In this document: in pieces, positions 6,091 to 24,000 of the stretch
Layout: every line of letters begins with the position of its first letter
Numbering within the stretch: the stretch's first letter is position 1
Assembly: GCA_020049335.1 (NCBI GenBank)
Contig: JAIFKX010000219.1
Coordinates: 1 to 32,662 of the forward strand
DNA from: Paludibacter sp.
GTDB lineage: Bacteria; Bacteroidota; Bacteroidia; Bacteroidales; Paludibacteraceae
DNA: 32,662 nucleotides
Reading direction: 5' to 3'
Notes under the pieces: model-generated
Told to the model about the DNA's origin: nothing
The model's database searches: none
What the model saw: the letters and a program-made list of their open reading frames with translations, nothing else
Made by a program: the position numbers and the translations under genes

Positions 6091-6118
6091 ATGAGAATTA
6101 CCTTTGTTCATCAGGATT

Positions 6119-7135: not shown

Positions 7136-7162
7136 ACTGTTTCGGTACTATATATAATGATA

Positions 7163-7190
7163 TACAGTTATTAATTGCTTTTTCACTACT
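7163..7190 (-). promoter_or_regulatory. Putative ECF sigma promoter of fecR, locus 1
   Basis: On the minus strand this reads AGTAGTGAAAAA, 9 nt, AACTGTA. It matches the susC-proximal copy at 11 of 12 and 7 of 7 positions with identical spacing, while the 9-nt gap differs. It ends 27 nt before the fecR ATG. Confidence 0.6.
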
Positions 7191-7209
7191 TTGTCGTAAA
7201 AATTTAATG

Positions 7210-7794
7210 TTAAATTATCATCGATGCAATAAGTATTGCTAATATATTATCGTAATGTGCTTTTATTTCACTTTTCATAAACGAAAGTGCTTTCGAAAGT
7301 TGCGTTTCAATAGTGCTTTCCGTAATATTTAGTTTTTGTGCAATTTCTTTGTTCGAGAGTCCATCTTTCCTGCTTAAAATGAAAATTTCTCTCCGCTTGG
7401 GTGGTAATTTGTCGGCTAATTTATCAATATATTCTTCCAGTAAATTTTTATCTAGCTCTTTTTCAGTACTATCATCATTCTCCACGGTTCTCACCTTCAC
7501 ATATTCTTCGTAAATAAACTGAATAGTTTGGTGTTCGTATTCATTCAGCAGCATATTTTTGGCAATTGTACACAAATAAGAAATAAACGATTTATCCGGA
7601 TTAACGTATTCCTTTGTTTCCCAAACTTTTATAAAAGTCCGCTGAACCAACTCCTCCGCAATATAACTATCGCCTTTCGACACCTTCATTACAAAATTAT
7701 ACAGTTTGCCACTATACCGATGATAAAGGCTCTCAAAAGAGGGCGATGAGCCTTTTTTGAGCAATTCCAATTCTTCTTTTTCGGAGAGAGGCAT
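7210..7794 (-). CDS. ECF-type RNA polymerase sigma factor, locus 1
   Basis: This 194-residue sigma-70 family protein of the extracytoplasmic-function class has region 2 at about residues 18-85 (SLYHRYSGKLYNFVMKVS, AEELVQRTFIKVWETKE) and region 4 at about 125-180 (LPPKRREIFILSRKDGLSN, helix-turn-helix NKEIAQKLNITESTIETQL). It heads a sigma-fecR-susC-susD series, the classical cell-surface-signalling order. A TAnnTTTG box and a 13-bp inverted repeat lie upstream. It is not close in sequence to the locus 2 sigma factor, consistent with a different promoter specificity. Confidence 0.95.
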   Translation of the reverse strand: MPLSEKEELELLKKGSSPSFESLYHRYSGKLYNFVMKVSKGDSYIAEELVQRTFIKVWETKEYVNPDKSFISYLCTIAKNMLLNEYEHQTIQFIYEEYVKVRTVENDDSTEKELDKNLLEEYIDKLADKLPPKRREIFILSRKDGLSNKEIAQKLNITESTIETQLSKALSFMKSEIKAHYDNILAILIASMII

Positions 7795-9180: not shown

Positions 9181-9189
9181 TGCAGTATA

Positions 9190-9531
9190 TTATTCAAATT
9201 CAGGAATTTCTGAATTTCCTTTGTCAATAATTGGTTCAATAACCGAATTCAGCTTTTTGGTTTTCGGAGCTCTTTTCTTCACTATCAATCCGGCATCCTG
9301 TATTTGTCGGCCTATCGGGTCTTTATCAGCCAGTAACAACAAATCGTCTTCGAGGCGTAAAATTGATAATACCTGCAAATAATTTCCCAACGAAACTGTA
9401 GCAATCCCAGCTCGTTCTGCCATCGAACGAATGGATAACTTCCGTCGTAAACGGGCTAATTTAATATTCTCGCCAAGTGTAGCGAGAATTTTCTGTTGCT
9501 TTTGAGTAAAACTTATTGCTTTCGATTGCAT
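9190..9531 (-). CDS. hipB: HipB-type antitoxin with apparent loss of the recognition helix
   Basis: This 113-residue protein is the antitoxin partner of the HipA that follows 9 nt later. Residues 21-43 (ENIKLARLRRKLSIRSMAER, then AGI) match helices 1-2 of a HipB/Xre helix-turn-helix, and residues 44 onward (ATVSLGNYLQVL, LEDDLLLLADKDPIGRQIQD) match the later part. In family members known to me, AGI is followed by about a dozen residues of the type SRxTLxxIEKG, which form the DNA-recognition helix. Those residues are missing here and the frame stays open. The C-terminal basic tail (KKRAPKTKK) is retained. It may still bind HipA but is unlikely to bind its operator normally. Confidence 0.85.
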   Translation of the reverse strand: MQSKAISFTQKQQKILATLGENIKLARLRRKLSIRSMAERAGIATVSLGNYLQVLSILRLEDDLLLLADKDPIGRQIQDAGLIVKKRAPKTKKLNSVIEPIIDKGNSEIPEFE

Positions 9532-9754: not shown

Positions 9755-10966
9755 TTACTCCTTTAGTATTTTAGCCGAATATTTTAAACCAAATAAATCA
9801 CTAATTTCAAGAATATACATTCCTGTAGTTATATTTGATGCATTAATGGAGTTTTCCCCATTTGTCAAGCTGCCAACCATTACTTTTTGACCACTTAAAT
9901 TACTTAATGCATAGGTTGCTTCTCTATCTATACAAATGTTTAATTGATTATTTACTGGATTAGGATAGGATAAAAATTCAAATGATTTGTAATTGGTAGT
10001 ATTTGTCAAATCTTGACATGCAGTAGGGAAATTACTTAATAAAGGGTTATATCCATTTCCTGTAACTACATATGTAGTGAAATTCCCTGATGCGACTAAA
10101 GCATTCAGTCCACATAAACTTTTTAAAATCGTGTTGTCCTTTACGTCTATAGCAGCTCCTGCTCCCAAACTCGTTAAATTATCTAATCCTGTTAAATTAG
10201 ATAATAACGGATTGGTACGAACATAAAGACTTCCACCTGCACTTGTTAAACTCGAAAGACCAGAGATACTCGTTAAAGCGTTGTTCGACGTAATTTCAAC
10301 ATTTCCCCCTACACTTGTTAATCCCGTAAGATCATTGATATTCGCTAAAGAGTTGTTCAACGTTATTTTAAGTAGTCCTGTTATGTTTGTTATTGAAGAA
10401 AGTGTTCCTAAAGAAGTCAGTGCAGGATTTGAGTTTATTTCTAATAATCCGTTAATAATTCCATAATTTATAGCGCTGATATCTGATAAAGCGGTATTGT
10501 TGTATATTGTAATTCCACCAGTTAAGGGTGGGTTTATTAAATTCCCAAGACCATTTAAGCTTGTCAGATTAAGATTGTCACGAATAATAATTGCGCCACC
10601 CAAAGAGGTTAATCCTCCAAGTGGTGCAATACTTGTAAGCCCATCACAATCTCTAATTACCAAAGTTCCTCCCACAGAAGTAATATTTGACAAACTACTA
10701 ATACTTGTAACGATAGGACTTATTGATTTTAATTGTAAATAGCTGCCGACTTGCACAATGTTCTGTAATTTAGAAATGTCGGTAATAGTCGAACCCTGTA
10801 CATTCACAAAACCAGTGACTGTAATTTGTGAACACGGAGGTGACCAAGCATCCAATTGCGCCTGGGTAGTAAAATTCAGATCTCCTGTAAATGTACATTG
10901 CGCATTAGCAGTATAACCTGAAATTAGCATAATGCTTAAGCTCAAAAAAAAGGAAATTTTCTTCAT
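9755..10966 (-). CDS. Secreted leucine-rich receptor-L-domain-like repeat protein with T9SS sorting tail
   Basis: This 403-residue protein has a signal peptide ending at NAQ (about residue 22). About ten 20-25-residue repeats follow (consensus like LTSLGGLSSLTSVGGxLxIxNN, from about 60 to 300), resembling the receptor L-domain/leucine-rich solenoid. From about residue 330 there is a type A T9SS C-terminal sorting domain (SYPNPVNNQLNI, LSNLSGQKV, ITTGMYILEI, KILKE). It should be exported through the type IX system and anchored or released at the cell surface. It is the last gene of locus 2 and ends before a hairpin at 9675-9707. Binding or adhesion is inferred and no enzyme motif is seen. Its last repeat resembles the C-terminus of the preceding FN3 lipoprotein. 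Confidence 0.88.
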   Translation of the reverse strand: MKKISFFLSLSIMLISGYTANAQCTFTGDLNFTTQAQLDAWSPPCSQITVTGFVNVQGSTITDISKLQNIVQVGSYLQLKSISPIVTSISSLSNITSVGGTLVIRDCDGLTSIAPLGGLTSLGGAIIIRDNLNLTSLNGLGNLINPPLTGGITIYNNTALSDISAINYGIINGLLEINSNPALTSLGTLSSITNITGLLKITLNNSLANINDLTGLTSVGGNVEITSNNALTSISGLSSLTSAGGSLYVRTNPLLSNLTGLDNLTSLGAGAAIDVKDNTILKSLCGLNALVASGNFTTYVVTGNGYNPLLSNFPTACQDLTNTTNYKSFEFLSYPNPVNNQLNICIDREATYALSNLSGQKVMVGSLTNGENSINASNITTGMYILEISDLFGLKYSAKILKE

Positions 10967-11038
10967 GATGATTTGTTTTTTTTGGTGAATATAAAATTGA
11001 ATTTATTTGAAAATTTTACTTTCTAAATGTTTAAAAAA

Positions 11039-12310
11039 TTAATGACAATTATCCAAAATTTCTTGCTTTGTTGGGTTTGAAGCGTTACCCGTAACTGTGT
11101 ATGTTGCAGGTGCACCTCCAGCGTCAATTAGGTTTTTCAGACCGCAAAAATTGGATAGATTTTTATTATTGGTAATGTTTATATAAGTTGCAATAAATGT
11201 TAATTTGCTGAATGCATCCAAATTTGTAATACCTGTACCTACAATATCAAACTTACCTTCAATTCTCTCTAAATTTGAAAAATTACTAATATTTGATATA
11301 CCTGCAACATTCATTTTGAGTTTTCCAGCCAAAATTGCTACAATATCTTTATCAAAAGCATCCATATCAGTTTGACTTGCCGGACTGAAATTTCCGAAAC
11401 GTATTTTTTTTGTAACCCCAGCAGAATAATTCCCGCTTGCATCTTTTGTTTTTAAAATAAGGGTATAGTTTTGTTCATAAGTTCCATCAATTGTAAAACT
11501 ATTATTTGTACCTTGAATAGTTACAGTTTTTGGGCTTGTAGAGCCGTAATAATAAGTTAACTCGGATTCTTGAAAGTCTGCATCCGACGGATTTGCCCAC
11601 GATATGGTAAACTGTAATTTGGCATAATCTCCTGAAAGAGTAATATTTGAAACTTCAGCCGGAGGTATATTGTCACCTTCAGTAGGTGTTGTTTTTACTG
11701 AAGTACCTGTTGAGATATTGCCTACTTCATCTTTTGTTTTTAAAACAATTGTATATTGTGTTCCATTTGTTAAGCCTTCAATAACATAAGAATCAATTTC
11801 TTTCCCAAGAGCTACGAATCCACCTCCCGGCTCATAATTTAATTCATATCCAGCCAAGTCAATTGATGATGGTTTAGTCCAGCTCAAGGTAATTTTCGAG
11901 TCACTAGAAACTGCTAAAAAATTAGTCACTTCAGATGGAGGATTTCTATCAAGTACACTTGGTGTTGCAGATATTGATACTCCTTTTGAAACACCTCCTG
12001 ATATATTTTTAACCAATAACGTAAATGTATAATTAGTTCCTCCTTTAAGATTTTTAATGGTAAAAGTTTCTAAGTTTTTATCAATAGGAAAAGCATCTAT
12101 TACAAGCGGTTCGATGGTTACCCAATATTCCTTTGTGTCAGTATCTGCTGGTTTAGTCCAAGATAAAACCACTTCTTCTATTCCTACTACTGCGGTAAAA
12201 TTTGATGCATCCGAAGGTATAGTAATTTTTTCATCATCATTTGTGCATCTTACTGAGAATAGGCTAAATATTATAACAACAAAAATGCTGCTTTTAAATT
12301 GTCTTTTCAT
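11039..12310 (-). CDS. Lipoprotein with three FN3 domains and an L-domain-like C-terminus
   Basis: This 423-residue protein has an N-terminal hydrophobic signal ending in FSVRC (Cys about 23) followed by TNDDE. That is lipoprotein-like, although Arg directly before the Cys is atypical. Three fibronectin type III domains follow at about 33-117, 123-208 and 215-302 (repeated ASNFTAVVGxEEVVLSWTKP and GLTNGTQYTIVLKTKDEVG type strands). Residues about 310-423 are a short leucine-rich L-domain-like region ending CGLKNLIDAGG and TYTVTGNASNP, matching the last repeat of the T9SS protein encoded next. The gene is 29 nt after the first GDPD stop. It is probably a surface binding protein serving the SusCD-2 system. 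The ligand is unknown. Confidence 0.85.
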   Translation of the reverse strand: MKRQFKSSIFVVIIFSLFSVRCTNDDEKITIPSDASNFTAVVGIEEVVLSWTKPADTDTKEYWVTIEPLVIDAFPIDKNLETFTIKNLKGGTNYTFTLLVKNISGGVSKGVSISATPSVLDRNPPSEVTNFLAVSSDSKITLSWTKPSSIDLAGYELNYEPGGGFVALGKEIDSYVIEGLTNGTQYTIVLKTKDEVGNISTGTSVKTTPTEGDNIPPAEVSNITLSGDYAKLQFTISWANPSDADFQESELTYYYGSTSPKTVTIQGTNNSFTIDGTYEQNYTLILKTKDASGNYSAGVTKKIRFGNFSPASQTDMDAFDKDIVAILAGKLKMNVAGISNISNFSNLERIEGKFDIVGTGITNLDAFSKLTFIATYINITNNKNLSNFCGLKNLIDAGGAPATYTVTGNASNPTKQEILDNCH

Positions 12311-12339
12311 GATTTCAATTGTTTTTTATTAAAACGTTT

Positions 12340-13269
12340 TTATCTTAAGCCTTTTGAATTTAAGTATTTTATTAAAGCTTCTGGCTCGTCCGTAAATATG
12401 ATATTTGCTCCATTTTTTAATGCCCAACCCCAACCATTATCTGGGTTCACTAAAGACTCTTCATCAGTATGGCCTGCACATTGATCTATTGTTGTAGTAT
12501 TAATCCAAACAGGAATGTGGCTATTAGCTGCATTTTTTATTAATGAAAATGATTTAGAATCCTCTTCCTTAAACCAAAAGGCAAAAGCTGCTGGCTTAGG
12601 CATAAAACCCTCTTCAAATTCAGAAAAATATTTATCCAAATTTGAAATACTATTATGTACACCTGGTACAAAATAAGATTTGCTTAAGAGGTTACCATAT
12701 CTTTTTTTTGCATCACCTAAGTTTATGAAATCCATAAAAAGGGATTGACTTACCGAATTTGTTTTGTTTAAAATGGGAATTACATAGTCTAAGAGAAGTT
12801 CTGATTTATCTATAAATACCAACGCTTTGTTTCCTACAGTAATCATGACTTCTTCTAATGTTGGGATACGCTCCTTTGTGATAGAACCATTTTTATCTTT
12901 TAAATAAAATTGTTTTATTTCATTTAATGTATGATAGCTAACTTTACCAGTACCATTAGATGTCCTATCTAGTGTTTTATCATGCATCACCACCAATTTA
13001 TAATCAAGTGTTATCCGAACATCTATTTCAATGATGTCAACTCCCAATTCTAAAGCATGTTTAATGGCACTTAAAGAATTTTCCGGTGCGTCACCATGTT
13101 TAAAACCTCCAGCTCTGTGAGCGGCTACCATAACATATTTATCTGATGGAAAATTAAATTGACGTGTCTCAATGGTTCCTATTTTCTCAACCGAATTCTG
13201 TTGCGAACATGCCACAATGGATAAAAATAATACTGAAATGGATAAAAATACTGTTTTAAATATACACAT
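12340..13269 (-). CDS. Glycerophosphodiester phosphodiesterase, lipoprotein
   Basis: This 309-residue GDPD-family TIM barrel is predicted to hydrolyse glycerophosphodiesters to glycerol-3-phosphate and an alcohol. The signal sequence ends in a good lipobox (LSIVAC, Cys 21), so it is membrane-anchored, possibly at the surface. Catalytic and metal residues are in place: AAHRAGG (His51, Arg52), APENS (Glu63, Asn64), IIEIDVR (Glu81, Asp83) and VVMHDKTLDRTSNG (His96). The HR-to-EN segment is a few residues longer than in its neighbour. It follows the second GDPD gene by 24 nt in the same operon as susCD-2, which suggests that the phosphodiester or its product is the cargo. Confidence 0.93.
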   Translation of the reverse strand: MCIFKTVFLSISVLFLSIVACSQQNSVEKIGTIETRQFNFPSDKYVMVAAHRAGGFKHGDAPENSLSAIKHALELGVDIIEIDVRITLDYKLVVMHDKTLDRTSNGTGKVSYHTLNEIKQFYLKDKNGSITKERIPTLEEVMITVGNKALVFIDKSELLLDYVIPILNKTNSVSQSLFMDFINLGDAKKRYGNLLSKSYFVPGVHNSISNLDKYFSEFEEGFMPKPAAFAFWFKEEDSKSFSLIKNAANSHIPVWINTTTIDQCAGHTDEESLVNPDNGWGWALKNGANIIFTDEPEALIKYLNSKGLR

Positions 13270-13293
13270 ATTTATTATTTTCTTTGTTCATTA

Positions 13294-14208
13294 TTAATCG
13301 TGAAAACCTCTAATACGTAAGTAATGCAGCAATGTTGCTGGTCTGTCTGTACAAATTAAATCTGCTCCAAGTTCGATAACTTTTCCCCAGTTCGCATCTG
13401 GGTCAATTTGTGCAAGGTCATCATTATATCCTCCGGCGGTATCTTCCCAAAGTGTTGTTAACATTATTCTTCCTTTGGCCTCTTTTGTTCTTTTTATTAG
13501 ATTTTTTGCATCATTTAATTCCTTTTTTTCAAAAGAAAATATGAAAATAGATTCCGTTTTTAGTTTCAAAAAAGGCATCATATAAGTATCAGAACTCGAT
13601 GCAGGTGATACTCTGGGCATATAATTTATATAATCAATAATGTTTCCATACTTAGATTTAATTTCACTATAGGTTTTATTCCCTTCATAGAAAACTTGGT
13701 CTTCCATTTTTAATTCTTTTACCATTTTTACAACCTCAGGCAGGTAGTCATAGTTTTTATCTAAAAAAACCAAAATTTTATTCTTACATAACTTTAATGC
13801 CTCTAATAGAGTAGGGACTTTTTGAGAAGTAGCCATGCCGTATCCATTTTTTAAATATAAACTATCTATTGACTTAAAATTCTTGTCATTGATTAATCCT
13901 ATTCCTGTGCTTGTTCTGTCAAGAGTTTTATCATGCATTAAAATAATTGTACTATCTTTAGTTATTTGAAGGTCTATTTCCACCATGTCTACCCCCATAT
14001 CAATACATTTTTGTATAGCGGGAAAGGAGTTTTCTGGAGCATTTCGCCAATCTCCTCTGTGGGCAACAACCATAACTTTGTTTCTAAATAAGTAATTTAG
14101 GTCTTGAGCTGTATTTTTGTTAACGATATATGTATTTTTCACTTGAGCATAAAAACTATTTGTTCCCATGTTAAGAGATATTAATACAAACAAAATCCGA
14201 ATTTTCAT
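13294..14208 (-). CDS. Glycerophosphodiester phosphodiesterase, secreted without lipobox
   Basis: This 304-residue GDPD-family protein starts at the ATG at 14208, which gives a clean type I signal peptide (MKIRILFVLISLNMGTNSFY, then AQ). A longer frame to 14364 overlaps susD and adds 52 basic residues before the signal, so it was rejected. Catalytic residues are complete: VAHRGDW (His50, Arg51), APENS (Glu59, Asn60), VEIDLQ (Glu77, Asp79) and MHDKTLDRTSTG (His92). The lack of a lipobox Cys suggests a soluble periplasmic enzyme, whereas the adjacent paralogue is a lipoprotein. Two GDPDs in tandem with different anchoring suggest hydrolysis on both sides of the import step. The gene and its surroundings are very AT-rich. 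Confidence 0.93.
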   Translation of the reverse strand: MKIRILFVLISLNMGTNSFYAQVKNTYIVNKNTAQDLNYLFRNKVMVVAHRGDWRNAPENSFPAIQKCIDMGVDMVEIDLQITKDSTIILMHDKTLDRTSTGIGLINDKNFKSIDSLYLKNGYGMATSQKVPTLLEALKLCKNKILVFLDKNYDYLPEVVKMVKELKMEDQVFYEGNKTYSEIKSKYGNIIDYINYMPRVSPASSSDTYMMPFLKLKTESIFIFSFEKKELNDAKNLIKRTKEAKGRIMLTTLWEDTAGGYNDDLAQIDPDANWGKVIELGADLICTDRPATLLHYLRIRGFHD

Positions 14209-14317
14209 TTTATGGATATTCTTATTATTTATTTTTTGTTGTAAAAATTTAATCGAAAGATTTGTTACCCTATTCTTTCTGTTTTTTTTACAAACAGGAT
14301 CCTTCTGATTCATCTTT

Positions 14318-15739
14318 TTAGAAACCGTAACCGGGATTTTGAGTAATTTTGCCATTTGTAGCATCTACTTGGCTTTGAGGTATAGGATATAATAGATTTT
14401 CGTTTGTGACTGTATTCATAACTCCTGACTCTGAAGTATGTGCATTCATAACTTGAATTGCTTTACCTGTCCTAACCAAATCAAACCATCTATGGTTTTC
14501 AAAGGCTAATTCCCATCTTCTCTCATTGGCAATGGCTATCCTAAAACTATTTTGTTCAGGTAAATCTAAAGAGGTCAATGAAGATAAACCCGCCCTGTTT
14601 CTAATTTTGTTTAAAAGGGTAAATGCTTCGTCATCTGCAATATACCCTTGCTCGTTTAATGCTTCGGCCAGCATTAAGACAACATCTGCATATCGTAAAA
14701 CAATAAAATTATTTCCACCATCTAAATCTTTAAATGGAGTATCTATATATTTTTTAGTGTACAAAACGTCACTAGTTGTTTTTCCCATAGTTACATCCCT
14801 TCTAATATCGCCAACTGGATATGAATTATAAATATCTTGAGTTGGCAGGTTATCGCCAAAGGTGGTTCCAATGCCTCCAATTAGATAAGAGGCGCCAAAA
14901 GGTGTAAACAAATTTGCATAAGGGCTACCTTCTCCTATTCCTCCTTTTTTGAATTGAATTTCAAACAATGATTCAACACTGTTTTCATTCGCTAATCCAA
15001 AATTATCGGCGTAATTCGGTAAAAGCACACCTGAAACATTCCTTAAAGCAGCAATGGCCTCTGTAAAGTTCCCTAAAGTCAATTGCACCTTGCCTAACAA
15101 GGCATAAGCAGCATTTTTGGTGGCTCCTCCTGGTCTCAAAGCATTAGTATTTAGTGATTGGCATGCTTCTGTTAAATCTTTAATTATTAGAGCATAAACA
15201 TCAGCTTTTGGAGTTCTTACCAACTCAAAGGCTTCAAAAGGATCTCCATATTCTTTGGTAACTAAAGGTACATCTCCAAACAATCTAACTAAATTGAAAT
15301 ATGTCAGTGCTCTAATAAATTTTATTTCACCTATTTGAACAGTCTTATTAGGATTAACGGATACGGATTCAATTCTTTTTAATACGATATTACACCGTTG
15401 AATTCCTTTATAGCAGTCTTTCCAAGCTAATTCCACCACATTACTGGTTGCCTCCATTCTAAACAAATCAACATCTCCGAATACACCTCCACTGCTGGTT
15501 GTACTTTGTTGTTTGGAATTATCCGACCGTACTTCCATCAAATAAATAAAATATTGACGGTATTGTCCAGTCAATTGTAGACCATCATAAACTCCCACAA
15601 CGGCTTGTTCTATTTGTTCGGGCGTACTATAAAAATTACCAGCACTATTTTGCGAAATTGGGCTTAGTTGTATTAAGTCTTCATTGCAAGATGAAAACAC
15701 TCCTGTAATGGCTATGATAATAACGAACTGCTTATACAT
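14318..15739 (-). CDS. SusD/RagB-family nutrient-binding lipoprotein, locus 2
   Basis: This 473-residue protein has a lipoprotein signal (lipobox VFSSC, Cys 17) then NEDLIQLSPISQNS. SusD features are GIQRCNIVLKRIESV, IGEIKFIRALTYFNLVRLFGD, NAAYALLGKVQLTLG and the C-terminal NERRWELAFENHRWFDLVRTG with LLYPIPQSQVDA. It starts 14 nt after susC-2 and should form the lid of that transporter. Downstream are two GDPD genes, so a glycerophosphodiester-containing ligand is inferred rather than seen. Confidence 0.95.
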   Translation of the reverse strand: MYKQFVIIIAITGVFSSCNEDLIQLSPISQNSAGNFYSTPEQIEQAVVGVYDGLQLTGQYRQYFIYLMEVRSDNSKQQSTTSSGGVFGDVDLFRMEATSNVVELAWKDCYKGIQRCNIVLKRIESVSVNPNKTVQIGEIKFIRALTYFNLVRLFGDVPLVTKEYGDPFEAFELVRTPKADVYALIIKDLTEACQSLNTNALRPGGATKNAAYALLGKVQLTLGNFTEAIAALRNVSGVLLPNYADNFGLANENSVESLFEIQFKKGGIGEGSPYANLFTPFGASYLIGGIGTTFGDNLPTQDIYNSYPVGDIRRDVTMGKTTSDVLYTKKYIDTPFKDLDGGNNFIVLRYADVVLMLAEALNEQGYIADDEAFTLLNKIRNRAGLSSLTSLDLPEQNSFRIAIANERRWELAFENHRWFDLVRTGKAIQVMNAHTSESGVMNTVTNENLLYPIPQSQVDATNGKITQNPGYGF

Positions 15740-15753
15740 AAAATTAATGTTAA

Positions 15754-18700
15754 TTATAATGTTAAATTAAATCCTGCTACTATGGTTTTGGCAACAGGAT
15801 ACGCCCCGTAATCAAAACCTGGTGTAGTGGTTCTACTACTATTAAATGAATTATTGTTTGATGAAACTTCTGGATTATAACCAGTATATTTAGTTAGTGT
15901 AAATAGGTTGGTTGCAGATAAATATACAGTGGCACTTTTCATGGATAATTTTTTCAGAAAATTCCCTGATATATTGTATTTAAGTGAAACCTTCTTTAGC
16001 CTAAAATAAGAAGCATCCTCTACAAATAAATCGGATTGCTCATAGGTTTTTACGTGTTTTCCGGGAGATGCATATGTAGCATCCGGATTTAATGTAGTAT
16101 AATAATTATTTATGTCATTGTGACCATTAGACCATCCCTCTAAATTACGAATAAAAAAACTGGTACCATTAAATACCTCATAACCTTGTTTACCCTGAAT
16201 TAAGAAACTAAATGCAAAATTTCTATATTTAAAGTTGTTTGAAAAACCAAACGTGTAGTCTGGAAAGAAATCACCTGAAATATATTTGTCATTGGATGTT
16301 ATTTTTCCATCCTCGTCAAGGTCAGCAAAGATATAATCCCCCAAACGCATTTCAGGCTGTGTTACGGGATAATTATTAATTTGTTCCTGACTATTAAAAA
16401 CTCCAATTTTTTTATAAGTATAATATGACCCCATAGGTTTACCAACCTCAGTAATATGATAATCCTTCAATATTCTTTCTTGTCCTGGTCCCAACTCCAA
16501 AACTATATTTTTATTGGTTGATACGTTCATAGTGCTACTCCATTTTACAACACCCAATTTTATATTTGCTATACTTAATGCAAATTCAAAGCCTGAGTTT
16601 TGAACCTTACCTATATTTCTCAATGAAGAAGTATAGCCTGAGTGAGCAGGAACAGGAACTTCTAATAACAATCCATTGGTAATGGCATTATAATAATCGG
16701 CTGTGAAACTTATCTTATTTTTGATTAAGCCTATATCAATTCCAAAATCAAGTGTATTGGTTTGTTCCCATGACAAATTTTGATTCGGCGATGTATTAGG
16801 TGCATAACCAGTCAAATCATCATAATTAGCATTCCCTAGTAAAGGAATAGCGCCATAATTTGGTATTCCATTATTGCCTGTAACTCCCCAACTTGTACGC
16901 AGTTTTAAGTCGCTAACTATTTTACAAGTAAAATACTCTTCTTTATTTATTCTCCAAGCTCCCGAAAAAGATGGAAACCATCCCCACTTTGTATTTAATC
17001 CAAATCGAGATGAACCATCACGTCTTATTGACCCGCTTAAAATGTACTTCTCTTGATAATCATAATTAAATCTACTAAAATAGGATATTAATGCCCATTT
17101 TTCCTGAAATTTTGGGAAGGTGGTTGTAATTACACCATCTACTTGACTAATTTGAGCCAAAAGAGGATTTGAGCCTGTGGTATTCATATCCTCAGTTTGG
17201 TAGGACTGTCCTAATAATAACTTAAAGTTATGTTTATCAAAAAAAATATTTTGATAGGTAGCAGTATTTTCGAACATCAAATTTTGACGCTCGTAAAAAG
17301 ATTTGAATGCAGTAGATTGGGCATTTTCTACTAAAACGGAATAAGAACCAACTGTATTGGGGCTGAATGTTTTTCGGTCAGATGAGGAATAGTCCAGCCC
17401 AAGATATGACTTAATCATAATGTTCAAAGAAGGACGAAATTCTATATAGGCTCCACCTAATAAATCTCTTTGAATTCTTTTATCCGTATTTAAGAGTGCT
17501 AATGCAACAGGGTTTTCGACTGGTGCTTGCCCGTTATCAATAGCAAATCTCATCATATCATCGCTTAAATTTAAGCTACCATCAGAATTGTATGGCTTAA
17601 ATGATGGGTTTGCTATTAATGCAGTCATAATTACACCATTTCCTTTATGATCATCATCTGATACTCTATTTCTATCCGAAAACGTTGGAGCTAAATATAT
17701 AGCTGCTTTAAACATTTTTTGAAAATCAAAATTAAGATTGAATCTGAAATTAACTCTTTGATATTTTGAGCCTAAAACAATACCATCCTGATTTAAATAA
17801 CCACCAGATATAAAATAATCCATATTCTTAGAACCACCTGAAGCTGTGACACTAATATTATGCATAGGTGCAATTTTAAAAATCTCGTCTTGCCAATCAG
17901 TGTTTACAATACCAGGAATACCTATTAAATAAGGTTGATTCTGAGGTAATGGAGCTTTACCTCTATTAATTAATGCTTGAGCACCAAACTTAGCCCTTTC
18001 ATAAGCGTCCTGCATTTCTACTGTTTTTTCTACCTCTTGTAATCCAGTATATCCATCAAACGTTAATTTAAAGCCGCCTTTATCTCCCTTTTTTGTAGTA
18101 ACAAATATCACTCCGTTAGATCCTCTAGAACCATAAATTGAAGCTGAGGCAGCATCTTTTAATATATCGATTCTCTCAATATCACTAGGATTGATAGAAT
18201 TAAGATTTAAGTTCTCAGAAGGTAATCCATCAATTACAATTAAAGGTTTGGCATTAGCAGATATTGTGCTCACGCCTCTAATGTTAATAGTTGAACTGCT
18301 TCCAGGATCTCCAGATGTTTGTACTATCTGAACACCAGCCAATTGCCCTGCAAGACCTTCTTCAAAACTAGCTATTGGGGAGCTTAATAGATCTTCAGAT
18401 TTTAAAGTTGAGATGGAATTTGTAGTCTTCACTTTAGATTGTGAGCCATAACCTATAACTAAAACTTCGTTTAATGCCTTTGATTCTTCTTTAAGTACAA
18501 TAATTATATTACCTTTAGTAGAAGCATTTATTTCCGTACTAATGTATCCAATATACGAAATTGATAGAACAGCTTGATCAGTAGCCTCTATGCTAAACTT
18601 ACCATTTACATCTGAAATTGTTCCTGCATTTGAACCAATTATTTTAACTGTAGCTCCAATTATCGGGTCGCCTTTTTCATCGGTTACCAAGCCGGTAATT

Positions 18701-19047
18701 TTTTTTGATTGATTAACAGTGTTTTTTTGATCGGCATTTTTCTTTTCAACCAAATACAATTTATTTTTTTTGATATCGTAATCAAGGTTTGTTCCTATTA
18801 AAAGTTGCTTTAAAGCATCTTCTACCGGAATGGAATTGACGTTAATACTCACTTTTCTATTCAGGTTAACCAATTGCTCGCTATAAACGGGCGATAAACC
18901 TGTTTGTTGTTTGATGGAATTCAACACTTTCTCGAATTTTTCATTCTTAAACGAAAGCGTTACTTTCTGAGCAGAAGCATTAAATACGAATACAGTCAAA
19001 AAAAATGTGAGCAAAATTACTTTTGGAAATGGTCTTTTCTTTTTCAT
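15754..19047 (-). CDS. SusC/RagA TonB-dependent receptor with STN domain, locus 2
   Basis: This 1097-residue outer-membrane transporter has a signal peptide ending at NASAQ (about residue 27). An STN domain covers about 28-102 (VTLSFKNEKFEKVLNSIKQQ). A carboxypeptidase-regulatory-like domain follows at about 117-200 (KKITGLVTDEKGDPIIGATV). Then come the TonB-box-like LNEVLVIGYG, the plug (KPLIVIDGLP, ILKDAASASIYGSRGSNGVI) and the barrel, ending AGFNLTL. STN plus an upstream sigma-fecR pair indicates a signalling transporter. A terminator and a bipartite promoter-like motif precede it. The gene is AT-rich compared with the fecR-2 and sigma-2 genes upstream. The regulatory-like domain contains a 64-nt block differing from susC-1 at one base. 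Confidence 0.96.
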   Translation of the reverse strand: MKKKRPFPKVILLTFFLTVFVFNASAQKVTLSFKNEKFEKVLNSIKQQTGLSPVYSEQLVNLNRKVSINVNSIPVEDALKQLLIGTNLDYDIKKNKLYLVEKKNADQKNTVNQSKKITGLVTDEKGDPIIGATVKIIGSNAGTISDVNGKFSIEATDQAVLSISYIGYISTEINASTKGNIIIVLKEESKALNEVLVIGYGSQSKVKTTNSISTLKSEDLLSSPIASFEEGLAGQLAGVQIVQTSGDPGSSSTINIRGVSTISANAKPLIVIDGLPSENLNLNSINPSDIERIDILKDAASASIYGSRGSNGVIFVTTKKGDKGGFKLTFDGYTGLQEVEKTVEMQDAYERAKFGAQALINRGKAPLPQNQPYLIGIPGIVNTDWQDEIFKIAPMHNISVTASGGSKNMDYFISGGYLNQDGIVLGSKYQRVNFRFNLNFDFQKMFKAAIYLAPTFSDRNRVSDDDHKGNGVIMTALIANPSFKPYNSDGSLNLSDDMMRFAIDNGQAPVENPVALALLNTDKRIQRDLLGGAYIEFRPSLNIMIKSYLGLDYSSSDRKTFSPNTVGSYSVLVENAQSTAFKSFYERQNLMFENTATYQNIFFDKHNFKLLLGQSYQTEDMNTTGSNPLLAQISQVDGVITTTFPKFQEKWALISYFSRFNYDYQEKYILSGSIRRDGSSRFGLNTKWGWFPSFSGAWRINKEEYFTCKIVSDLKLRTSWGVTGNNGIPNYGAIPLLGNANYDDLTGYAPNTSPNQNLSWEQTNTLDFGIDIGLIKNKISFTADYYNAITNGLLLEVPVPAHSGYTSSLRNIGKVQNSGFEFALSIANIKLGVVKWSSTMNVSTNKNIVLELGPGQERILKDYHITEVGKPMGSYYTYKKIGVFNSQEQINNYPVTQPEMRLGDYIFADLDEDGKITSNDKYISGDFFPDYTFGFSNNFKYRNFAFSFLIQGKQGYEVFNGTSFFIRNLEGWSNGHNDINNYYTTLNPDATYASPGKHVKTYEQSDLFVEDASYFRLKKVSLKYNISGNFLKKLSMKSATVYLSATNLFTLTKYTGYNPEVSSNNNSFNSSRTTTPGFDYGAYPVAKTIVAGFNLTL

Positions 19048-19087
19048 TTAATATATTTAAGAAGTTGCTATTTCTGAAAATTTACAT

Positions 19088-19119
19088 AATTAACACACCA
19101 GCGGTCAAAAGGTATGAGT
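19088..19119 (-). promoter_or_regulatory. Putative ECF sigma promoter of susC, locus 2
   Basis: The minus strand reads ACTCATACCTTTT, 12 nt, GTTAATT, ending 40 nt before the susC-2 ATG. The 13-nt box recurs exactly before fecR-2 with a GTTTAAT box at the same 12-nt spacing (20240-20271). It differs from the locus 1 motif, as expected if each sigma factor has its own promoters. Confidence 0.6.
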
Positions 19120-19123
19120 GCAT

Positions 19124-19180
19124 TTAAAAAAATACCTACCAAAGTTCTCACTTTAATAAGTGTGTACTTAGGTAGGCATT
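19124..19180 (-). terminator. Intrinsic terminator or attenuator between fecR and susC, locus 2
   Basis: On the minus strand, arms at 19180-19158 and 19153-19131 pair through AAT, G-U, CCTACC, AAGT and CACTT segments with a few internal mismatches and a 4-nt loop. Seven T residues (19130-19124) follow directly. It sits between fecR-2 and the susC-2 promoter motif, as in locus 1. Confidence 0.75.
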
Positions 19181-19183
19181 AAA

Positions 19184-19218
19184 TCTTTGTTCTTTACTCT
19201 TTGTTCTTTGCTCTTCTT
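19184..19218. repeat. Heptamer tandem array TCTTTRY, five units
   Basis: Five consecutive 7-nt units read TCTTTGT, TCTTTAC, TCTTTGT, TCTTTGC and TCTTCTT on the plus strand, ending exactly at the fecR-2 stop codon (19219). The unit family is the same as in the array before rnpA (29433-29495), in opposite orientation. Confidence 0.75.
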
Positions 19219-20205
19219 CTAATTTCTCTCCGAAATACGGTATTTCCCTTCGTAGTTTTGTTTAAAGCTTACTTTTGATACTTTTTCCAAATCACTCAGC
19301 ACTTCATCGAGATTACTTTTATTGGTGGAAATGCTAAATCGGTAGTTCAATAAAGCTGAGTCGCTTACATCAAACTGCACTTCATATTGCCTTTCAAGCG
19401 TTTTAATAATTTCCCTAAGTGGTGTGCGGTAAAAATTCAGGCTTTTGGTGCGCCAGGCTGTGTGTAAAGTCATGTCGGGGGCTGTGGTTATTTTACAAAC
19501 TCCGGTTGTGCGGTCGTATTCGACACTTTCGCCCACTTTCAAGGGATAAGTTTTGTCGGTTTTGTCGGCTATATTTACACTTCCTTCTTCCAATGCTACT
19601 CGTATCTTTTTGTCTTCAGGATATGCTCTCGCGTTAAAATGTGTGCCGGTTACTTTTACTTTAATATCCTTTAAATCCACCTCGAATGGTCGGGTCGATT
19701 CTTTGGCTACCGCAAAATAACCTTCGCCCGTTAGTTTTACTTTTCTACTAAAAAGCCCGAAGGTTTTTGGATATTGGAGTCGTGAGCCCGAATTGAGCTG
19801 TACTTGTGTACCATCCTGAAGCACCACATTAAGTTGTTCTCCGTAAGGCACTACAAACTCAGCCATTTCTTCGGATTGAAAAACGCCCGAATGATTCGCC
19901 ACATACATAAATGCGCCTGCCAACACCAAAAATGGCACGAGTACAGCCGCCACCACACGAAACCGGAATGTGCGAACCCGCAAGTTGAGCTGCGAAAGGA
20001 AACGAACTTTCATTCGTTTTGAAGGAATTTCATTTTCTATCCATTCTTCCAATATCTTTTCGTTAAGTAAATATGATTCGCGGTCGTATCGTTGCGCGAA
20101 ATAAGCCTGTCCCTCCTCCGTTGCAAACCATGCAGCTACCTGTCGGGCTTGTTCGGGAGTGGCTGTTTTCGAAAATACGTTATCTATAATTTTGGGGTCA
20201 AACAT
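19219..20205 (-). CDS. FecR-family transmembrane anti-sigma factor, locus 2
   Basis: This 328-residue protein has a cytoplasmic sigma-binding part at about 1-77 and one transmembrane segment at about 78-98 (VVAAVLVPFLVLAGAFMYV). The periplasmic FecR domain (LNVVLQDGTQVQLNSGSRLQ, GEGYFAVAKESTRPFEVD) and a C-terminal DUF4974-like end (IIKTLERQYEVQFDVSD) follow. It lies 81 nt after sigma-2 and ahead of susC-2 and should transmit the receptor's STN signal to sigma-2. Base composition is much higher in G+C than the susCD and GDPD genes downstream (34 of 60 at 19921-19980 by my count). A bipartite promoter-like motif lies 34 nt upstream. Confidence 0.94.
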   Translation of the reverse strand: MFDPKIIDNVFSKTATPEQARQVAAWFATEEGQAYFAQRYDRESYLLNEKILEEWIENEIPSKRMKVRFLSQLNLRVRTFRFRVVAAVLVPFLVLAGAFMYVANHSGVFQSEEMAEFVVPYGEQLNVVLQDGTQVQLNSGSRLQYPKTFGLFSRKVKLTGEGYFAVAKESTRPFEVDLKDIKVKVTGTHFNARAYPEDKKIRVALEEGSVNIADKTDKTYPLKVGESVEYDRTTGVCKITTAPDMTLHTAWRTKSLNFYRTPLREIIKTLERQYEVQFDVSDSALLNYRFSISTNKSNLDEVLSDLEKVSKVSFKQNYEGKYRISERN

Positions 20206-20239
20206 TTTATAATTAATTATTCATAACTATTACAATTCT

Positions 20240-20271
20240 ATTAAACATTTATATAGGAAAAAGGTATGAGT
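20240..20271 (-). promoter_or_regulatory. Putative ECF sigma promoter of fecR, locus 2
   Basis: The minus strand reads ACTCATACCTTTT, 12 nt, GTTTAAT, ending 34 nt before the fecR-2 ATG. The 13-nt box is identical to the susC-2 copy (19107-19119), and the second box agrees as GTTWAWT at identical spacing. Confidence 0.6.
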
Positions 20272-20286
20272 TAAATGTCAAATTAT

Positions 20287-20883
20287 TTATAAAAAATATT
20301 TCAATGCTATTACAATAAATAGAAATTTGTCTATTTTTGAACGCAACAACTTAATTACCTGCGTATAATGCGATTTAACGGTCGGTATCGAAATATTCAT
20401 AGTATCTGCCACTTCCTGATTCGACATGCCCTGTTGAATTTTCAACAAACAAACTTCGCGCTTTTGGGGTGGCAGTTGCTCTATGAGTTTATACAAATGT
20501 GTTTTAAAGTCTGCATCCTCCAATTCATGCAGGAAGCCCGCTTCCATTTCTTCGTTGAACTGTGCCAATTCGTAGTTTTTCTGCAATGCCATGTTATTAT
20601 GCCTGATTTCGTTCAGCACATAATTTTTCAGAATGGTAAAGAGTAAATTCTTGATACCCGTTTTGTAGTCGAAGGTTTCGCGCCCTTCCCACAAGCGCAT
20701 AAAAGTATGTTGCACCGCATCCTCCGCATTGCTTTCGGACATTAAATACCGGCAAGCCAACACATACAAATATCGGTGATAGGTATCGAATACAACCGAA
20801 AAGGCTCGTTCGTTCCCATCCCGCAACTGCATAAGCAGTTCGTAATCAATATGTATATGGTCTTTTTGCACGCTGACAATCAA
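20287..20883 (-). CDS. ECF-type RNA polymerase sigma factor, locus 2
   Basis: This sigma factor of up to 198 residues has region 2 at about 28-90 (AFSVVFDTYHRYLYVLACRY, AEDAVQHTFMRLWEGRE) and region 4 at about 130-182 (LPPQKREVCLLKIQQGMSN, helix-turn-helix NQEVADTMNISIPTVKSHY). The longest frame begins at TTG (20883); a GTG four codons later (20871) is an equally possible start, and there is no ATG before region 2 except at residue 18. It heads the locus 2 sigma-fecR-susCD series. A TAnnTTTG box lies 46 nt upstream of the TTG. Confidence 0.93.
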   Translation of the reverse strand: MIVSVQKDHIHIDYELLMQLRDGNERAFSVVFDTYHRYLYVLACRYLMSESNAEDAVQHTFMRLWEGRETFDYKTGIKNLLFTILKNYVLNEIRHNNMALQKNYELAQFNEEMEAGFLHELEDADFKTHLYKLIEQLPPQKREVCLLKIQQGMSNQEVADTMNISIPTVKSHYTQVIKLLRSKIDKFLFIVIALKYFL

Positions 20884-21020: not shown

Positions 21021-24000
21021 TTATTTTACTCCTGACCCTTCCACAATCTTAATTTCCTCTTCCGTCAACTCATACAGCTCATATACCATTCTATCAATTC
21101 CCCTGTCCGTAGATTCTATTTGGTTTTTAATCTCGAGGGCTTTGGTTTGTTCGGCGGCGAAGTAGTCTTCCCATTCGGCTTCCTGAGCGAGAGTGAATTT
21201 TATCTTTTTCTTGCCGAGTTCTGTTACGAAATCTTTATAAGTGAGTGTATACCAATTTTGCAGTTTTACAGGCAATTCTTCCAAGTCGAACTTGCGCTGA
21301 AGCATACGTTGGAATTTTTGAGAAACGGCGTTTAGTTGTTTGGTTAACAACAGTATTTTACTGGCTTCGCTTACAAAAGGCTCTTGCTGCTCAGCATTAT
21401 CAAATAAAAAAATTGGAAAGTTTCGAATATCTTCTGGCAGAATACTGACTCCTCCTTTTAGCATAATCAAATAATAATATGTACTTAGTTTTGAATTTAT
21501 TAAAGCCAAAATAGCCAAATCATTTATTTCATTATTTTTATTCAAATGTGCTGATTTTGGTCGCTTAGCTGGGACAATATAGTCTTCAATCTCAACTCTT
21601 TTTGAACATATTATTAATTTTTGGTCGATATAATACCCTTCATTGTCATAAGTTGCATTCAAACCATCCGAAATAGCGCGAATTAATATTTTGTTTTTAT
21701 TATGTAATTCAGGGAAGGTTGGTCTTGACATGATATTTATATCATATTCCAAGTATTTCTTGTCAAAATCAATATAATACCGACTAACATCTTTTCCTTC
21801 AAGATATGGAACACATTTATCATTTACCTTTTCTGCAAAAAGGAAATCATCTTTTTTTCTACCATCAATTTTACTAAATGCAACTATACCTTTGCTAACA
21901 TAATATATTGATTCAAATAAAACGCTTTTTTCTTTAATTTTTTTTGTAATTTGTATAGAACTATCATTTAAATCTAATCTAAATTGGAAAGATTCTGTTT
22001 TTGTAAATTCATTTTGATTAATCTCAAAATAACAATCCTGAAAATCACTTATCTTTAATTTAGGTTTGAATATTTTCACTAAATTATTATCTGATTTTTT
22101 CTTTGTTATTACTAAAATGCAGACCTCAACCATTACATCAGCGAAAACTCTAAATCCAGTAAAATCAACAATTTGGGTTAGAGTATTTTCTTCAATGATT
22201 TTTTTTCTAATAAGAGTACCATATGGCACTGACATAATTACTGAGGGTATAATATAGCTAATATGACCGTTTCTTTTTAAGATACTAATTCCTTTTTCAA
22301 TAAATAACACATATAAATCATACTTTAAATGTGTTGTTTTGTATGATTTTGATAGATTAAAATAGTCTCTATCGAGACTTCTCATGTTATAAATATTTAC
22401 ATACGGCGGATTTCCTATCACCACATCAAACCCTTTATTCCCAATTTGATATTCTGCTTCGGGTGCCGAAACTGCTTTAAGTTTATCGGCATATTCGGTC
22501 AGTTGCTTGGTTATTTCCAATGCTTCTTTTGATAAGGCAATTCCCTGTTCGGCTTTTTGCTGTGCTTCGAGCGATTTTTCTTTAATTAGTTGCAGATAAT
22601 CGGGCGTTTGGGGTATTTCTTCAATAATTCTTGCTTCCATTTCTGCACTTACGCCAAACACTTGCGGAAATTCTTTTTCCCAGTTGAATGCTTTATCGCC
22701 TGCAACGGTTGGGTCGTCAATCAGTGAATTACCGCATTTAATATTGTTGTTCAGGTCGTTCAGTTTGCGGTTGGGTTGTGCGGTACGTAGCCACAGCGAC
22801 AGTTTGGCAATTTCCACACTTTCCTCGTTTATGTCCACTCCAAAGAGGTTGTTTTCCAAAATGCTTTTTTCCACATCGCTCAGCACCAGCGTATCGCCAA
22901 ATAGTTTTGCCTGCAATTCGTCGATATAGCGATGTTCGCGTATCAAAAAATCCAATGCCTCTACCAAAAATGCCCCCGAACCACAAGCCGGGTCGCATAT
23001 TGTGATTTGCAATAACCATTCGCGATAGGCAGTAAGTTTGTCAAACAGCAGCTTTTTGGCAGTTTTATTTTGCTTTTTGTCGGCGCTGTAATCCTCGTCT
23101 TTTAACCCGAGTTCTGCTTGTTTCTCCTCACAAAGTTTGCCTACAGTATTTTCTACTATGTATTTGGTAATGTATTTGGGCGTGTAAACAACACCATCGC
23201 GTTTGCGTTTGGTTTTCGATTTGTCGAATTCCTGACCTGCAGCCGCTGCTGAAAGTTCATCCAATTCGTTCAGCGAATTTTCAAAAATATGCCCTAAGAT
23301 ATTTACATCTACCTCGCTGGCAAAATCGTAATCGGAGAGTTTTAGCGTGTGTCGGTAAAGCAACTCATCGTCAATTTGCACCACATCCAATACATCATCG
23401 GGCTTAAAAAGTCCACCATTATAAGCAAATATATCGTGGTGTTTGCCTTTGTGTCCGGTGTTCAGATAACCGAAATACAATTTAAACCGACTGTACAAAG
23501 GAGTGTATGCATCCAAGTCTTTCAGGTCGTTCCATTGTTTCAGAATTTCACGCACCGAATTGGGCGGGAGGAGTTGGCGGTCTTCGGCAAACAGCAAAAA
23601 CAAGAAGCGGTCGAGCAGTTTCTGCGATTTTTTAAATAGCAGTAATTCGTCCATTTCGGGATTTAGTGCCACTAAATTCTGATGCAGTTCGCGTTTAAAA
23701 AGCGAATAATCTTTGTACAGATTTTTGGTAATGCTGTCTTCTTCGCTTATCGAAGCATTTTTGATTTTTTTGGGCAGGTCGGCAGCAATACTTTCGTAAG
23801 CCAAACAAACCCAGAGTAATTCAAACTCCTTGAGAGTAAGCGTAAACAGGTTAAACTCGATGTGTTCAATGGCATTGTCGATATAAAATCGCAGCTTTTC
23901 GAAGTTGGAAATAACAATGTAAGTACATTCGGGTTGGTTATTTTTATAGCCAAAAGCCTGTGGCTCTACTTTATCTAAATCGGTGGTTTCGGTACCTTTC

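What the first reader, a model, noticed from the sequence alone, without database searches (positions are those of the whole stretch)
9755..20883. Putative surface system for glycerophosphodiester uptake: sigma-FecR-SusCD with two GDPDs and two binding proteins
Seen: ECF sigma, FecR, STN-type SusC, SusD, two intact GDPDs, an FN3 lipoprotein and a T9SS-exported leucine-rich protein, all in one direction with short gaps. Known: SusCD systems import oligomers and SusC-FecR-sigma senses the cargo. Known: GDPDs cleave glycerophosphodiesters from phospholipids or teichoic-type polymers. Inference: the locus harvests such compounds as a phosphorus or glycerol source, with one GDPD anchored and one soluble. 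A SusCD operon built around GDPDs instead of glycosidases is a good candidate for an under-described utilisation locus.
Basis: partly seen in the sequence, partly recalled or inferred. Interest (0 to 1): 0.75.

Follow-up and report, generated by a model that had tools for sequence, protein, structure and literature searches.

The report
Glycerophosphodiester uptake locus with borrowed sensor
A Bacteroidota bacterium carries an operon that looks built to import and cut glycerol-phosphate compounds such as lipid headgroups, and its on-switch appears to be a shared module that relatives place in front of quite different cargo, including sugar-cutting enzymes.

Summary
In detail: eight same-strand genes (20883 to 9755) encode ECF sigma, FecR, STN-type SusC, SusD, two GDPDs, an FN3/Receptor-L lipoprotein and a Receptor-L protein with a T9SS tail. 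Both GDPDs keep the catalytic residues and carry DUF4996. In 7 of 10 other genomes with DUF4996 (395 sampled) a GDPD directly follows SusD; in 6 it is the DUF4996 enzyme (0.08 expected). The window's SusD and SusC plug-barrel each group with GDPD-linked partners from two other families (99/98, 99/95). Organophosphate-type transporters, PI-PLC and alkaline phosphatase accompany relatives. Glycerophosphodiester uptake and cleavage is the best reading, close to published Pus loci. Less expected is regulation: sigma, FecR, susC promoter and STN domain form a genus-level cassette; of 8 other loci, 3 carry glycosidases, one a GDPD-type barrel, four other or unresolved cargo. DNA homology stops inside SusC's NTE, and one barrel type occurs under two cassettes. 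SusC is thus a mosaic; induction by cargo, rather than phosphate starvation, is predicted. Substrate and induction are untested.

The parts
20287..20883 (-). ECF sigma factor (TTG start in the ORF list)
   Evidence: TIGR02985 140 bits, Sigma70_r2/r4_2; 72-82% identical in the 7 orthologous loci where the gene was fetched
20255..20270 (-). promoter-like element CTCATACCTTTT upstream of fecR
   Evidence: the inner 8-mer TCATACCT stands upstream of fecR in 6 of 9 loci with the orthologous FecR and with one change in the other 3 (L061, L065, L066)
19219..20205 (-). FecR-type anti-sigma
   Evidence: PF04773 + PF16344; orthologues 65-83% identical in 8 of 47 other genus genomes
19131..19180 (-). terminator-type hairpin between fecR and susC, followed by a T run
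   Evidence: -21.8 kcal/mol for 66 nt, z -5.1; similar hairpin-plus-T stretches are visible by eye in the fecR-susC gaps of the orthologous loci
19103..19118 (-). promoter-like element CTCATACCTTTT about 70 bases upstream of susC
   Evidence: exact in the window and in 7 of 7 orthologous loci with a SusC; none of 37 other SusC upstream regions is within one mismatch
15754..19047 (-). SusC (TonB-dependent transporter with STN, NTE, plug, barrel)
   Evidence: TIGR04056 865 bits, PF07660, PF13715, PF07715
18745..18888 (-). STN signalling domain of SusC (codons 54-101)
   Evidence: Pfam match; codons 28-110 are 64-86% identical to those of the 7 SusCs with orthologous sigma/FecR
18446..18714 (-). 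NTE (CarbopepD_reg_2) region of SusC, codons 112-201: the mosaic joint
   Evidence: 75-86% DNA identity to L045, L048 and L074, whose DNA matches the rest of the window susC only in short patches; a DNA match in 27 of 48 genus genomes, own included, often codons 113-151 only
14318..15739 (-). SusD lipoprotein
   Evidence: PF07980, PF14322; clade 99/98 with the GDPD-linked SusDs of L024 and L025
13294..14208 (-). GDPD-a, GDPD + DUF4996, type-I signal peptide by eye (start revised from 14364)
   Evidence: best solved relative 3i10, E 1.6e-56; catalytic residues intact
12340..13269 (-). GDPD-b, GDPD + DUF4996, lipobox LSIVAC by eye
   Evidence: 3i10, E 2.4e-44; 32% identical to GDPD-a; catalytic residues intact
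11039..12310 (-). FN3 + Receptor-L lipoprotein, probable surface binding protein
   Evidence: PF00041, PF01030; lipobox followed by Thr-Asn-Asp-Asp-Glu, read by eye
9755..10966 (-). Receptor-L/leucine-rich protein with T9SS sorting tail, probable surface binding protein
   Evidence: PF01030, PF18962, TIGR04183
9670..9711 (-). terminator-type hairpin after the last gene
   Evidence: -23.0 kcal/mol for 51 nt, z -5.7

Best explanation
A glycerophosphodiester utilisation locus with its own cargo sensor. The SusD lid and the two Receptor-L proteins catch glycerophosphodiester-containing molecules at the surface (inferred; too large or too scarce for porins, for example lysolipids, glycerophosphoglycans or teichoic-type fragments). 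SusC imports them with TonB energy. Periplasmic GDPD-a and lipid-anchored GDPD-b release sn-glycerol-3-phosphate, which an organophosphate-type MFS transporter encoded elsewhere in the genome (beside a third GDPD on contig C253) could take in. Loaded SusC signals through its STN domain to FecR, freeing the ECF sigma, which reads the CTCATACCTTTT promoters before fecR and before susC. Shown by sequence: gene content, intact catalytic residues, conserved synteny, shared SusC/SusD clades, the conserved promoter-like motif, two terminator-type hairpins, and the mosaic SusC. Inferred: substrate, localisation, operon structure, direction of regulation. The sensor half (sigma, FecR, promoter, STN) is a genus-level cassette joined within the NTE domain to a plug-barrel, SusD and GDPD unit of wider distribution.
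For: Domain content; GDPD catalytic positions kept in both enzymes (the choice of positions is recalled from GDPD structures). A GDPD is the gene directly after SusD in 7 of 10 other genomes with DUF4996; in 6 it is the DUF4996 enzyme itself, in G351 a GDPD without a DUF4996 match, the DUF4996 enzyme following two genes on. Expected 0.076; P 2.5e-11 for 6 and 8.5e-14 for 7, in a simple model. In the genus 3 of 4 other genomes with the family have GDPD behind SusD: directly in G396 and G461, with one gene between in G458. The window SusD groups with two GDPD-linked SusDs of other families, 99/98; the GDPD label needs 6 changes on that tree against a shuffled mean of 10.1, 0 of 500 as low. SusC plug-barrel: same three rows, 99/95; label 5 changes against 8.6, 1 of 500 as low. 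Organophosphate-type MFS beside such GDPDs in G351, own C253, G461 and G396; PI-PLC, alkaline phosphatase and PHP beside one (L026), a type-I phosphodiesterase beside another (L024). Mosaic: FecR and STN identities correlate (rho 0.66), FecR and barrel do not (0.06); the AU test rejects barrel monophyly of the window with the 7 sigma-orthologues, p 3e-62; DNA homology with the 7 loci stops at SusC codons 132-169 but for short patches.
Against: No enzyme assay or expression data exist for this locus. 20 further SusD-relative loci from the hits were fetched and none shows a GDPD-like ORF by blastp to the window enzymes (some, such as L108, are cut by contig ends), so the SusD family at large is not GDPD-specific; the closest single SusD (L107, 46-49%) is one of these. 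In 3 of 10 genomes the DUF4996 gene is not directly behind SusCD (L023, L028, L029). GDPD-linked SusCs and SusDs fall in several places on the trees. GDPD-type enzymes can have other activities (AvrBs2 makes a sugar phosphodiester; PMC12807533, passages). No glycerol-3-phosphate transporter lies in the locus itself, and the MFS relatives score below the GlpT cut-off. The NTE is a conserved protein motif, so part of its DNA identity could come from constraint rather than recombination.
Confidence: 0.7

Rival explanations
1. A phosphate-starvation locus of the Pus kind: SusCD plus phosphodiesterases switched on by low phosphate, with sigma/FecR only fine-tuning.
For: Pus loci of Flavobacterium pair SusCD with periplasmic phosphodiesterases or PhoA and were reported as induced under phosphate depletion only (PMC8115612, passages). 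L026 combines a SusCD-GDPD locus with SusCD-PI-PLC-PhoA-PHP, which recalls PUSI and PUSII.
Against: The promoter-like element goes with the sigma/FecR orthologue, exact in 8 of 8 loci and within one mismatch in 0 of 37 control regions, and the same element stands before loci with glycosidases (L060, L063, L064). No Pho box was searched for, because no Bacteroidota consensus was at hand.
Confidence: 0.3
2. A glycan locus in which the GDPDs only strip phosphoglycerol or similar substituents from an imported oligosaccharide; the nutrient is the sugar.
For: None of 20 further SusD-relative loci shows a GDPD-like ORF; the sensor cassette stands before glycosidase genes in 3 of 8 other loci; the Receptor-L proteins could bind glycans.
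Against: No glycosidase family is matched by any of the eight proteins, and the two GDPDs are the only enzymes recognised; related loci pair GDPDs with organophosphate-type transporters.
Confidence: 0.2
3. The STN/barrel contrast is a rate effect: STN, FecR and sigma evolve slowly while the barrel of the same orthologous gene evolves fast, with no recombination.
For: Signalling domains that must match FecR are expected to be constrained (general knowledge).
Against: The window barrel groups with other families' SusCs and not with the sigma-orthologues (AU p 3e-62). L061 and L074 share plug-barrel at 87% but STN at 41% and FecR at 43%, which one order of rates cannot give. Two sets of partners match adjoining DNA blocks of the window susC.
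Confidence: 0.05
4. The gdpd genes are housekeeping phospholipid-turnover genes that happen to follow susCD.
For: GDPDs are common: the control search rings in 11 of 14 named genomes.
Against: A GDPD directly follows SusD in 7 of 10 genomes against 0.076 expected, with linked clades across families.
Confidence: 0.05

Closest known systems
Pus (PusCD) phosphate utilisation systems of Flavobacterium johnsoniae, PMC8115612 (passages and section 16 seen)
   Same: SusCD pair with phosphodiesterase or phosphatase instead of CAZymes; predicted organophosphorus uptake
   Different: PUSI/PUSII enzymes are PI-PLC, a metallophosphatase and PhoA, and the loci are known by induction on phosphate depletion; here a GDPD-DUF4996 pair, Receptor-L proteins and a sigma/FecR/STN sensor; low-phosphate induction unknown
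B. thetaiotaomicron BT4724-BT4727 (TonB receptor, RagB/SusD, GDPD family protein), one table passage of PMC10434189
   Same: SusC/SusD-like genes listed close to a GDPD
   Different: only a table entry in an iron study; locus not read here, subfamily of its GDPD not tested
Fec-type cell-surface signalling (FecA-FecR-FecI; PMC11658791 and PMC9249621, passages)
   Same: receptor signalling domain, FecR, ECF sigma, target promoter
   Different: receptor is SusC with an added NTE; cargo proposed to be a phosphodiester; cassette joined to a barrel of other descent
PupA/PupB engineered chimeras (Koster 1994, as told in PMC9249621, passages)
   Same: swapping the N-terminal signalling domain re-directs signalling while the barrel sets the cargo (shown for PupBA; PupAB transported but no longer induced)
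   Different: made in the laboratory in siderophore receptors; here a natural counterpart in SusC, inferred from sequence
PDB 3i10, putative glycerophosphoryl diester phosphodiesterase
   Same: best solved relative of both GDPDs, aligned over nearly the whole enzyme
   Different: named 'putative' in the listing; its function was not looked up

Membership tests
GDPD (PF03009) with DUF4996 (PF16387) | both family profiles over their cut-offs | tested here: met
   GDPD-a 83.5 and 62.4 bits, GDPD-b 82.1 and 79.8 bits
GDPD (PF03009) with DUF4996 (PF16387) | catalytic H-R, E-N, E-x-D, H-D residues (set recalled) | tested here: met
   kept in both window enzymes; over 21 rows the only departures are one D-to-N in L073_7 and one in L020_10
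GDPD (PF03009) with DUF4996 (PF16387) | hydrolysis of glycerophosphodiesters | not testable with these tools
   needs enzyme assay
Pus (PusCD) system | SusCD pair co-localised with phosphoesterase | tested here: met
Pus (PusCD) system | induction under phosphate depletion | not testable with these tools
   no expression data
Pus (PusCD) system | orthology to one of the six published PusCD forms | not tested
   their sequences were not fetched
Polysaccharide utilisation locus | SusC and SusD homologues side by side | tested here: met
   TIGR04056, PF07980
Polysaccharide utilisation locus | carbohydrate-active enzymes in the locus | tested here: not met
   no glycosidase or lyase family among the Pfam matches of the eight proteins
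ECF sigma / FecR / STN cell-surface signalling | sigma, FecR and a receptor with STN domain encoded together | tested here: met
ECF sigma / FecR / STN cell-surface signalling | cognate promoter before the target operon | tested here: inconclusive
   conserved element in 8 of 8 cognate loci, 0 of 37 controls within one mismatch; binding by the sigma not shown
ECF sigma / FecR / STN cell-surface signalling | transcription induced by cargo through the receptor | not testable with these tools
   needs reporter assay

The most novel reading that the evidence does not exclude
In this genus the NTE-coding stretch of susC acts as a recombination joint: sigma-FecR-promoter-STN sensor cassettes are exchanged onto SusC barrels of unrelated cargo, so a switch used before glycosidase loci can be re-fitted to glycerophosphodiesters and one barrel can be re-fitted with another switch. 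Bacteroidota would thereby rewire which nutrient triggers which operon without evolving a new sensor.
Probability: 0.55. Interest if true: 0.75.

Novelty: new variant of a known kind. Interest (0 to 1): 0.58.

Why it matters
It extends SusCD uptake from glycans to a recurring GDPD-based phosphodiester locus found in several Bacteroidota families, relevant to how these bacteria may get phosphorus and glycerol from lipid and cell-wall debris. The mosaic SusC gives a concrete, testable route by which a bacterium could couple an existing sensor to a new nutrient, with a natural pair (L061 and L074) in which the same barrel type carries two different sensors.

Tried and rejected
Considered and set aside: a private oddity of this genome (rejected: a GDPD directly follows SusD in 7 of 10 other genomes); broken GDPDs (rejected); recent tandem duplication of the two GDPDs (not supported: 32% identical, and apart in the tree, although both stand on long branches and no starred set holds either); one long transcript from sigma to the last gene (not favoured); a simple rate difference instead of mosaicism.

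Led nowhere: the genome-contig scan gave only two weak hits in Clostridiales/Ruminococcaceae MAGs (L017, L018); Rfam gave no match in the window; no paper of the library holds the word DUF4996, and BT4724-4727 turned up in one paper, in a table. Printed precedent for natural sensor exchange in SusC was sought only; none of the listed titles reports it, and of the 25 listed papers three were opened for passages (PMC7782687, PMC11658791, PMC9249621). Whether it is in print elsewhere is not known. Xu et al. 2007, recalled as relevant to ECF sigma and SusC evolution, is not held.

Rows dropped and limits of the counts: the SusD tree left out loci L030-L033 (the window, or cut copies of loci used elsewhere) and SusD rows of 380 residues or fewer, and its bootstrap had not quite settled; the SusC plug-barrel tree used 32 of the 38 SusCs (left out L035, L038, L111, L112, L114, L124). 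The FecR tree used 31 hand-picked rows. The motif control used 37 SusC upstream regions chosen from the loci fetched. The adjacency model assumes 0.85 genes per kb and independent genomes. Group labels were set after seeing the gene tables, so the AU p-values are nominal; the larger AU set also contains L061, whose barrel belongs with L074.
Full report
What is there. On the - strand from 20883 to 9755 lie an ECF sigma factor, FecR, an STN-type SusC, SusD, two GDPD proteins, an FN3/Receptor-L lipoprotein and a Receptor-L protein with a T9SS tail. Both GDPDs match PF03009 and PF16387 (DUF4996) above the cut-offs. GDPD-a most likely starts at 14208, giving a type-I signal by eye; GDPD-b has a lipobox by eye. 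A hairpin plus T run separates fecR from susC (z -5.1) and another strong hairpin follows the last gene (z -5.7), so sigma-fecR and susC-to-last-gene look like two units. The generic scan did not list these two hairpins. A search of the own genome for Receptor-L found no match outside this locus, but it also missed the leucine-rich protein that hmmscan finds, so it is not sensitive.

Is the order real elsewhere? DUF4996 occurs in 11 of 395 sampled Bacteroidota genomes, own included. In 7 of the 10 others (G351, G261, G363, G182, G095, G138, G253) a GDPD is the gene directly after SusD on the same strand. In 6 of these it is the DUF4996 enzyme; in G351 it is a PKD-GDPD without a DUF4996 match, followed by a PKD/PQQ-propeller lipoprotein and then the DUF4996 enzyme. 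In 3 (G269, G190, G077) no GDPD directly follows SusD. With SusD counts of 3 to 55 in those ten genomes, 0.076 such cases are expected; P is 2.5e-11 for six and 8.5e-14 for seven under a simple model. In the genus, 5 of 48 genomes have the family: besides the window's own, G396 and G461 have SusD followed by two GDPDs (the DUF4996 one second; in G461 a 330-residue protein lies between), G458 has SusC-SusD, one gene, GDPD, and G463 has it without SusCD nearby.

Does the transporter go with the enzyme? In a 50-row SusD tree the window SusD groups with L024 and L025, both GDPD-linked and from two other families (99/98); L075, L021 and L026, all GDPD-linked, form another clade (100/100). The GDPD label needs 6 changes against 10.1 after shuffling, 0 of 500 as low. 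The SusC plug-barrel tree gives the same two clades (99/95 and 100/100), joined at 87/86; the label needs 5 changes against 8.6, 1 of 500 as low. Against this, 20 further SusD-relative loci show no GDPD-like ORF, so any specificity lies in sub-clades, not in the family, and L022, L027, L020 and the L072/L074 pair are GDPD-linked outside these clades.

What else travels with it? Beside GDPDs of this kind lie MFS proteins whose best NCBIfam models are PgtP/UhpC/GlpT, all below cut-off, so an organophosphate-type transporter not resolved further (L019, L020, L072, L076), a PHP-domain protein (L019, own genome), and in L026 a second SusCD with PI-PLC, alkaline phosphatase and PHP; a type-I phosphodiesterase follows the GDPD of L024. 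Catalytic positions are kept in both window enzymes. The best solved relative of both is 3i10.

The sensor. FecR orthologues (65-83%) occur in 8 of 47 other genus genomes; sigma is 72-82% identical in the 7 loci where it was fetched. Their FecRs form a 9-row clade with the window's (99/99). The cargo behind these eight differs: GH29 (L060), GH3 and a weakly GH30-like protein (L063), GH43 and GH36 (L064), an FAD oxidoreductase with a golvesin domain (L062); L061 carries a barrel of the GDPD type; L047, L065 and L066 are unresolved, and L066 has no SusC after fecR. L060 is not a clean glycan case: its contig ends in a fragment of the same organophosphate-type MFS (94 residues, 97% to L076), and its SusC and SusD group with those of the GDPD locus of G351, with a long-branch warning. 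The 12-mer CTCATACCTTTT stands about 70 bases before susC in the window and in 7 of 7 orthologous loci with a SusC; of 37 other SusC upstream regions none is within one mismatch, and the one at two mismatches is L074, whose sigma and FecR are the next relatives (45% and 42%). In 1400 shuffles of the seven regions 2 came within one mismatch and none was exact. Before fecR the inner 8-mer TCATACCT is exact in 6 of 9 loci and one change away in 3. In the own genome the exact 12-mer occurs four times: twice here and twice inside ORFs; at two mismatches the reversed control pattern is more frequent than the pattern, so weaker hits mean nothing. By exact matches the sigma's targets are this locus alone, in an assembly 83% complete.

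The mosaic. Window SusC and the 7 sigma-orthologue SusCs are 64-86% identical in the STN region but 24-33% in the barrel, below the 35-39% to several SusCs of other families. FecR identity tracks STN identity (rho 0.66) and not barrel identity (0.06). Holding the window with the 7 orthologues for the plug-barrel is rejected, p 3e-62, and with L060 alone p 0.0015. DNA homology to the 7 loci runs, in one or two blocks, from the sigma or fecR gene to SusC codons 132-169 and then ends apart from short patches; homology to L045, L048 and L074 covers codons 112-201, the NTE, plus short patches. L061 (G461) and L074 (G396) give the mirror case: FecR 43%, STN 41%, plug-barrel 87%, with DNA homology starting at codon 113. 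NTE DNA is found in 27 of 48 genus genomes, own included, often only its first half, and in six places of the own genome, the query itself included; conserved protein sequence may explain part of that. In the laboratory the PupBA chimera behaved as such a splice should (PMC9249621, passages). The sigma-FecR stretch is also richer in G+C (0.39-0.40) than the rest of the locus (0.28-0.36).

Reading. The locus most likely imports and cleaves glycerophosphodiester-containing molecules and is switched on by that cargo through SusC-STN, FecR and sigma. Substrate, cargo induction and phosphate dependence are inferences. It resembles the Pus loci (PMC8115612), which share SusCD plus phosphoesterase but are known through phosphate-depletion induction; membership is open because induction could not be tested and orthology to the six PusCD forms was not tested. 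It is not a PUL in the strict sense, since no CAZyme family was matched.

Limits. No structure was obtained (server busy). The G461 locus is inferred across a contig break: L061 ends at the start of susD and L072 begins inside susD.

Noticed in passing
window 2-7794: A second sigma-FecR-SusC-SusD system followed by an FN3 + PQQ-propeller lipoprotein cut by the contig start; its SusC is 58% identical to one on own contig C64. Cargo unknown.
   Followed up: partly
window 7924-9531: HipA-like protein with a 113-residue partner of no Pfam match; an 83% identical HipA lies near the GDPD locus of G461 (L072).
   Followed up: no
window 21021-24329: Eco57I-type restriction-modification protein directly upstream of the sigma gene.
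   Followed up: no
window 24666-28724: Hybrid two-component regulator (Reg_prop, HisKA, receiver, AraC-type HTH) with no SusCD directly beside it.
   Followed up: no
L026:1100-9499: SusCD followed by PI-PLC, alkaline phosphatase and PHP protein next to a SusCD-GDPD locus: recalls PUSI and PUSII beside the GDPD type.
   Followed up: partly
L028:9979-11619: A GDPD-like part followed by an alpha/beta-hydrolase-like stretch (read by eye) in one 546-residue protein beside another GDPD.
   Followed up: no
window 18457-18888 (SusC codons 54-197): STN precedes NTE here, whereas a passage of PMC7782687 says that NTE precedes STN in all cases.
   Followed up: no
L020_10, L072_1, L074_2, L027_6, L028_5, L028_6, L029_7: The Lys of the LDK motif is replaced in these 7 of 21 GDPDs, among them the three GDPDs that directly follow SusD in two-GDPD loci outside the window; this hints at a different specificity.
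   Followed up: no
L060:1-284: The GH29 locus under the orthologous sigma cassette ends, at the contig edge, in a fragment of the organophosphate-type MFS that stands beside GDPDs in relatives.
   Followed up: partly
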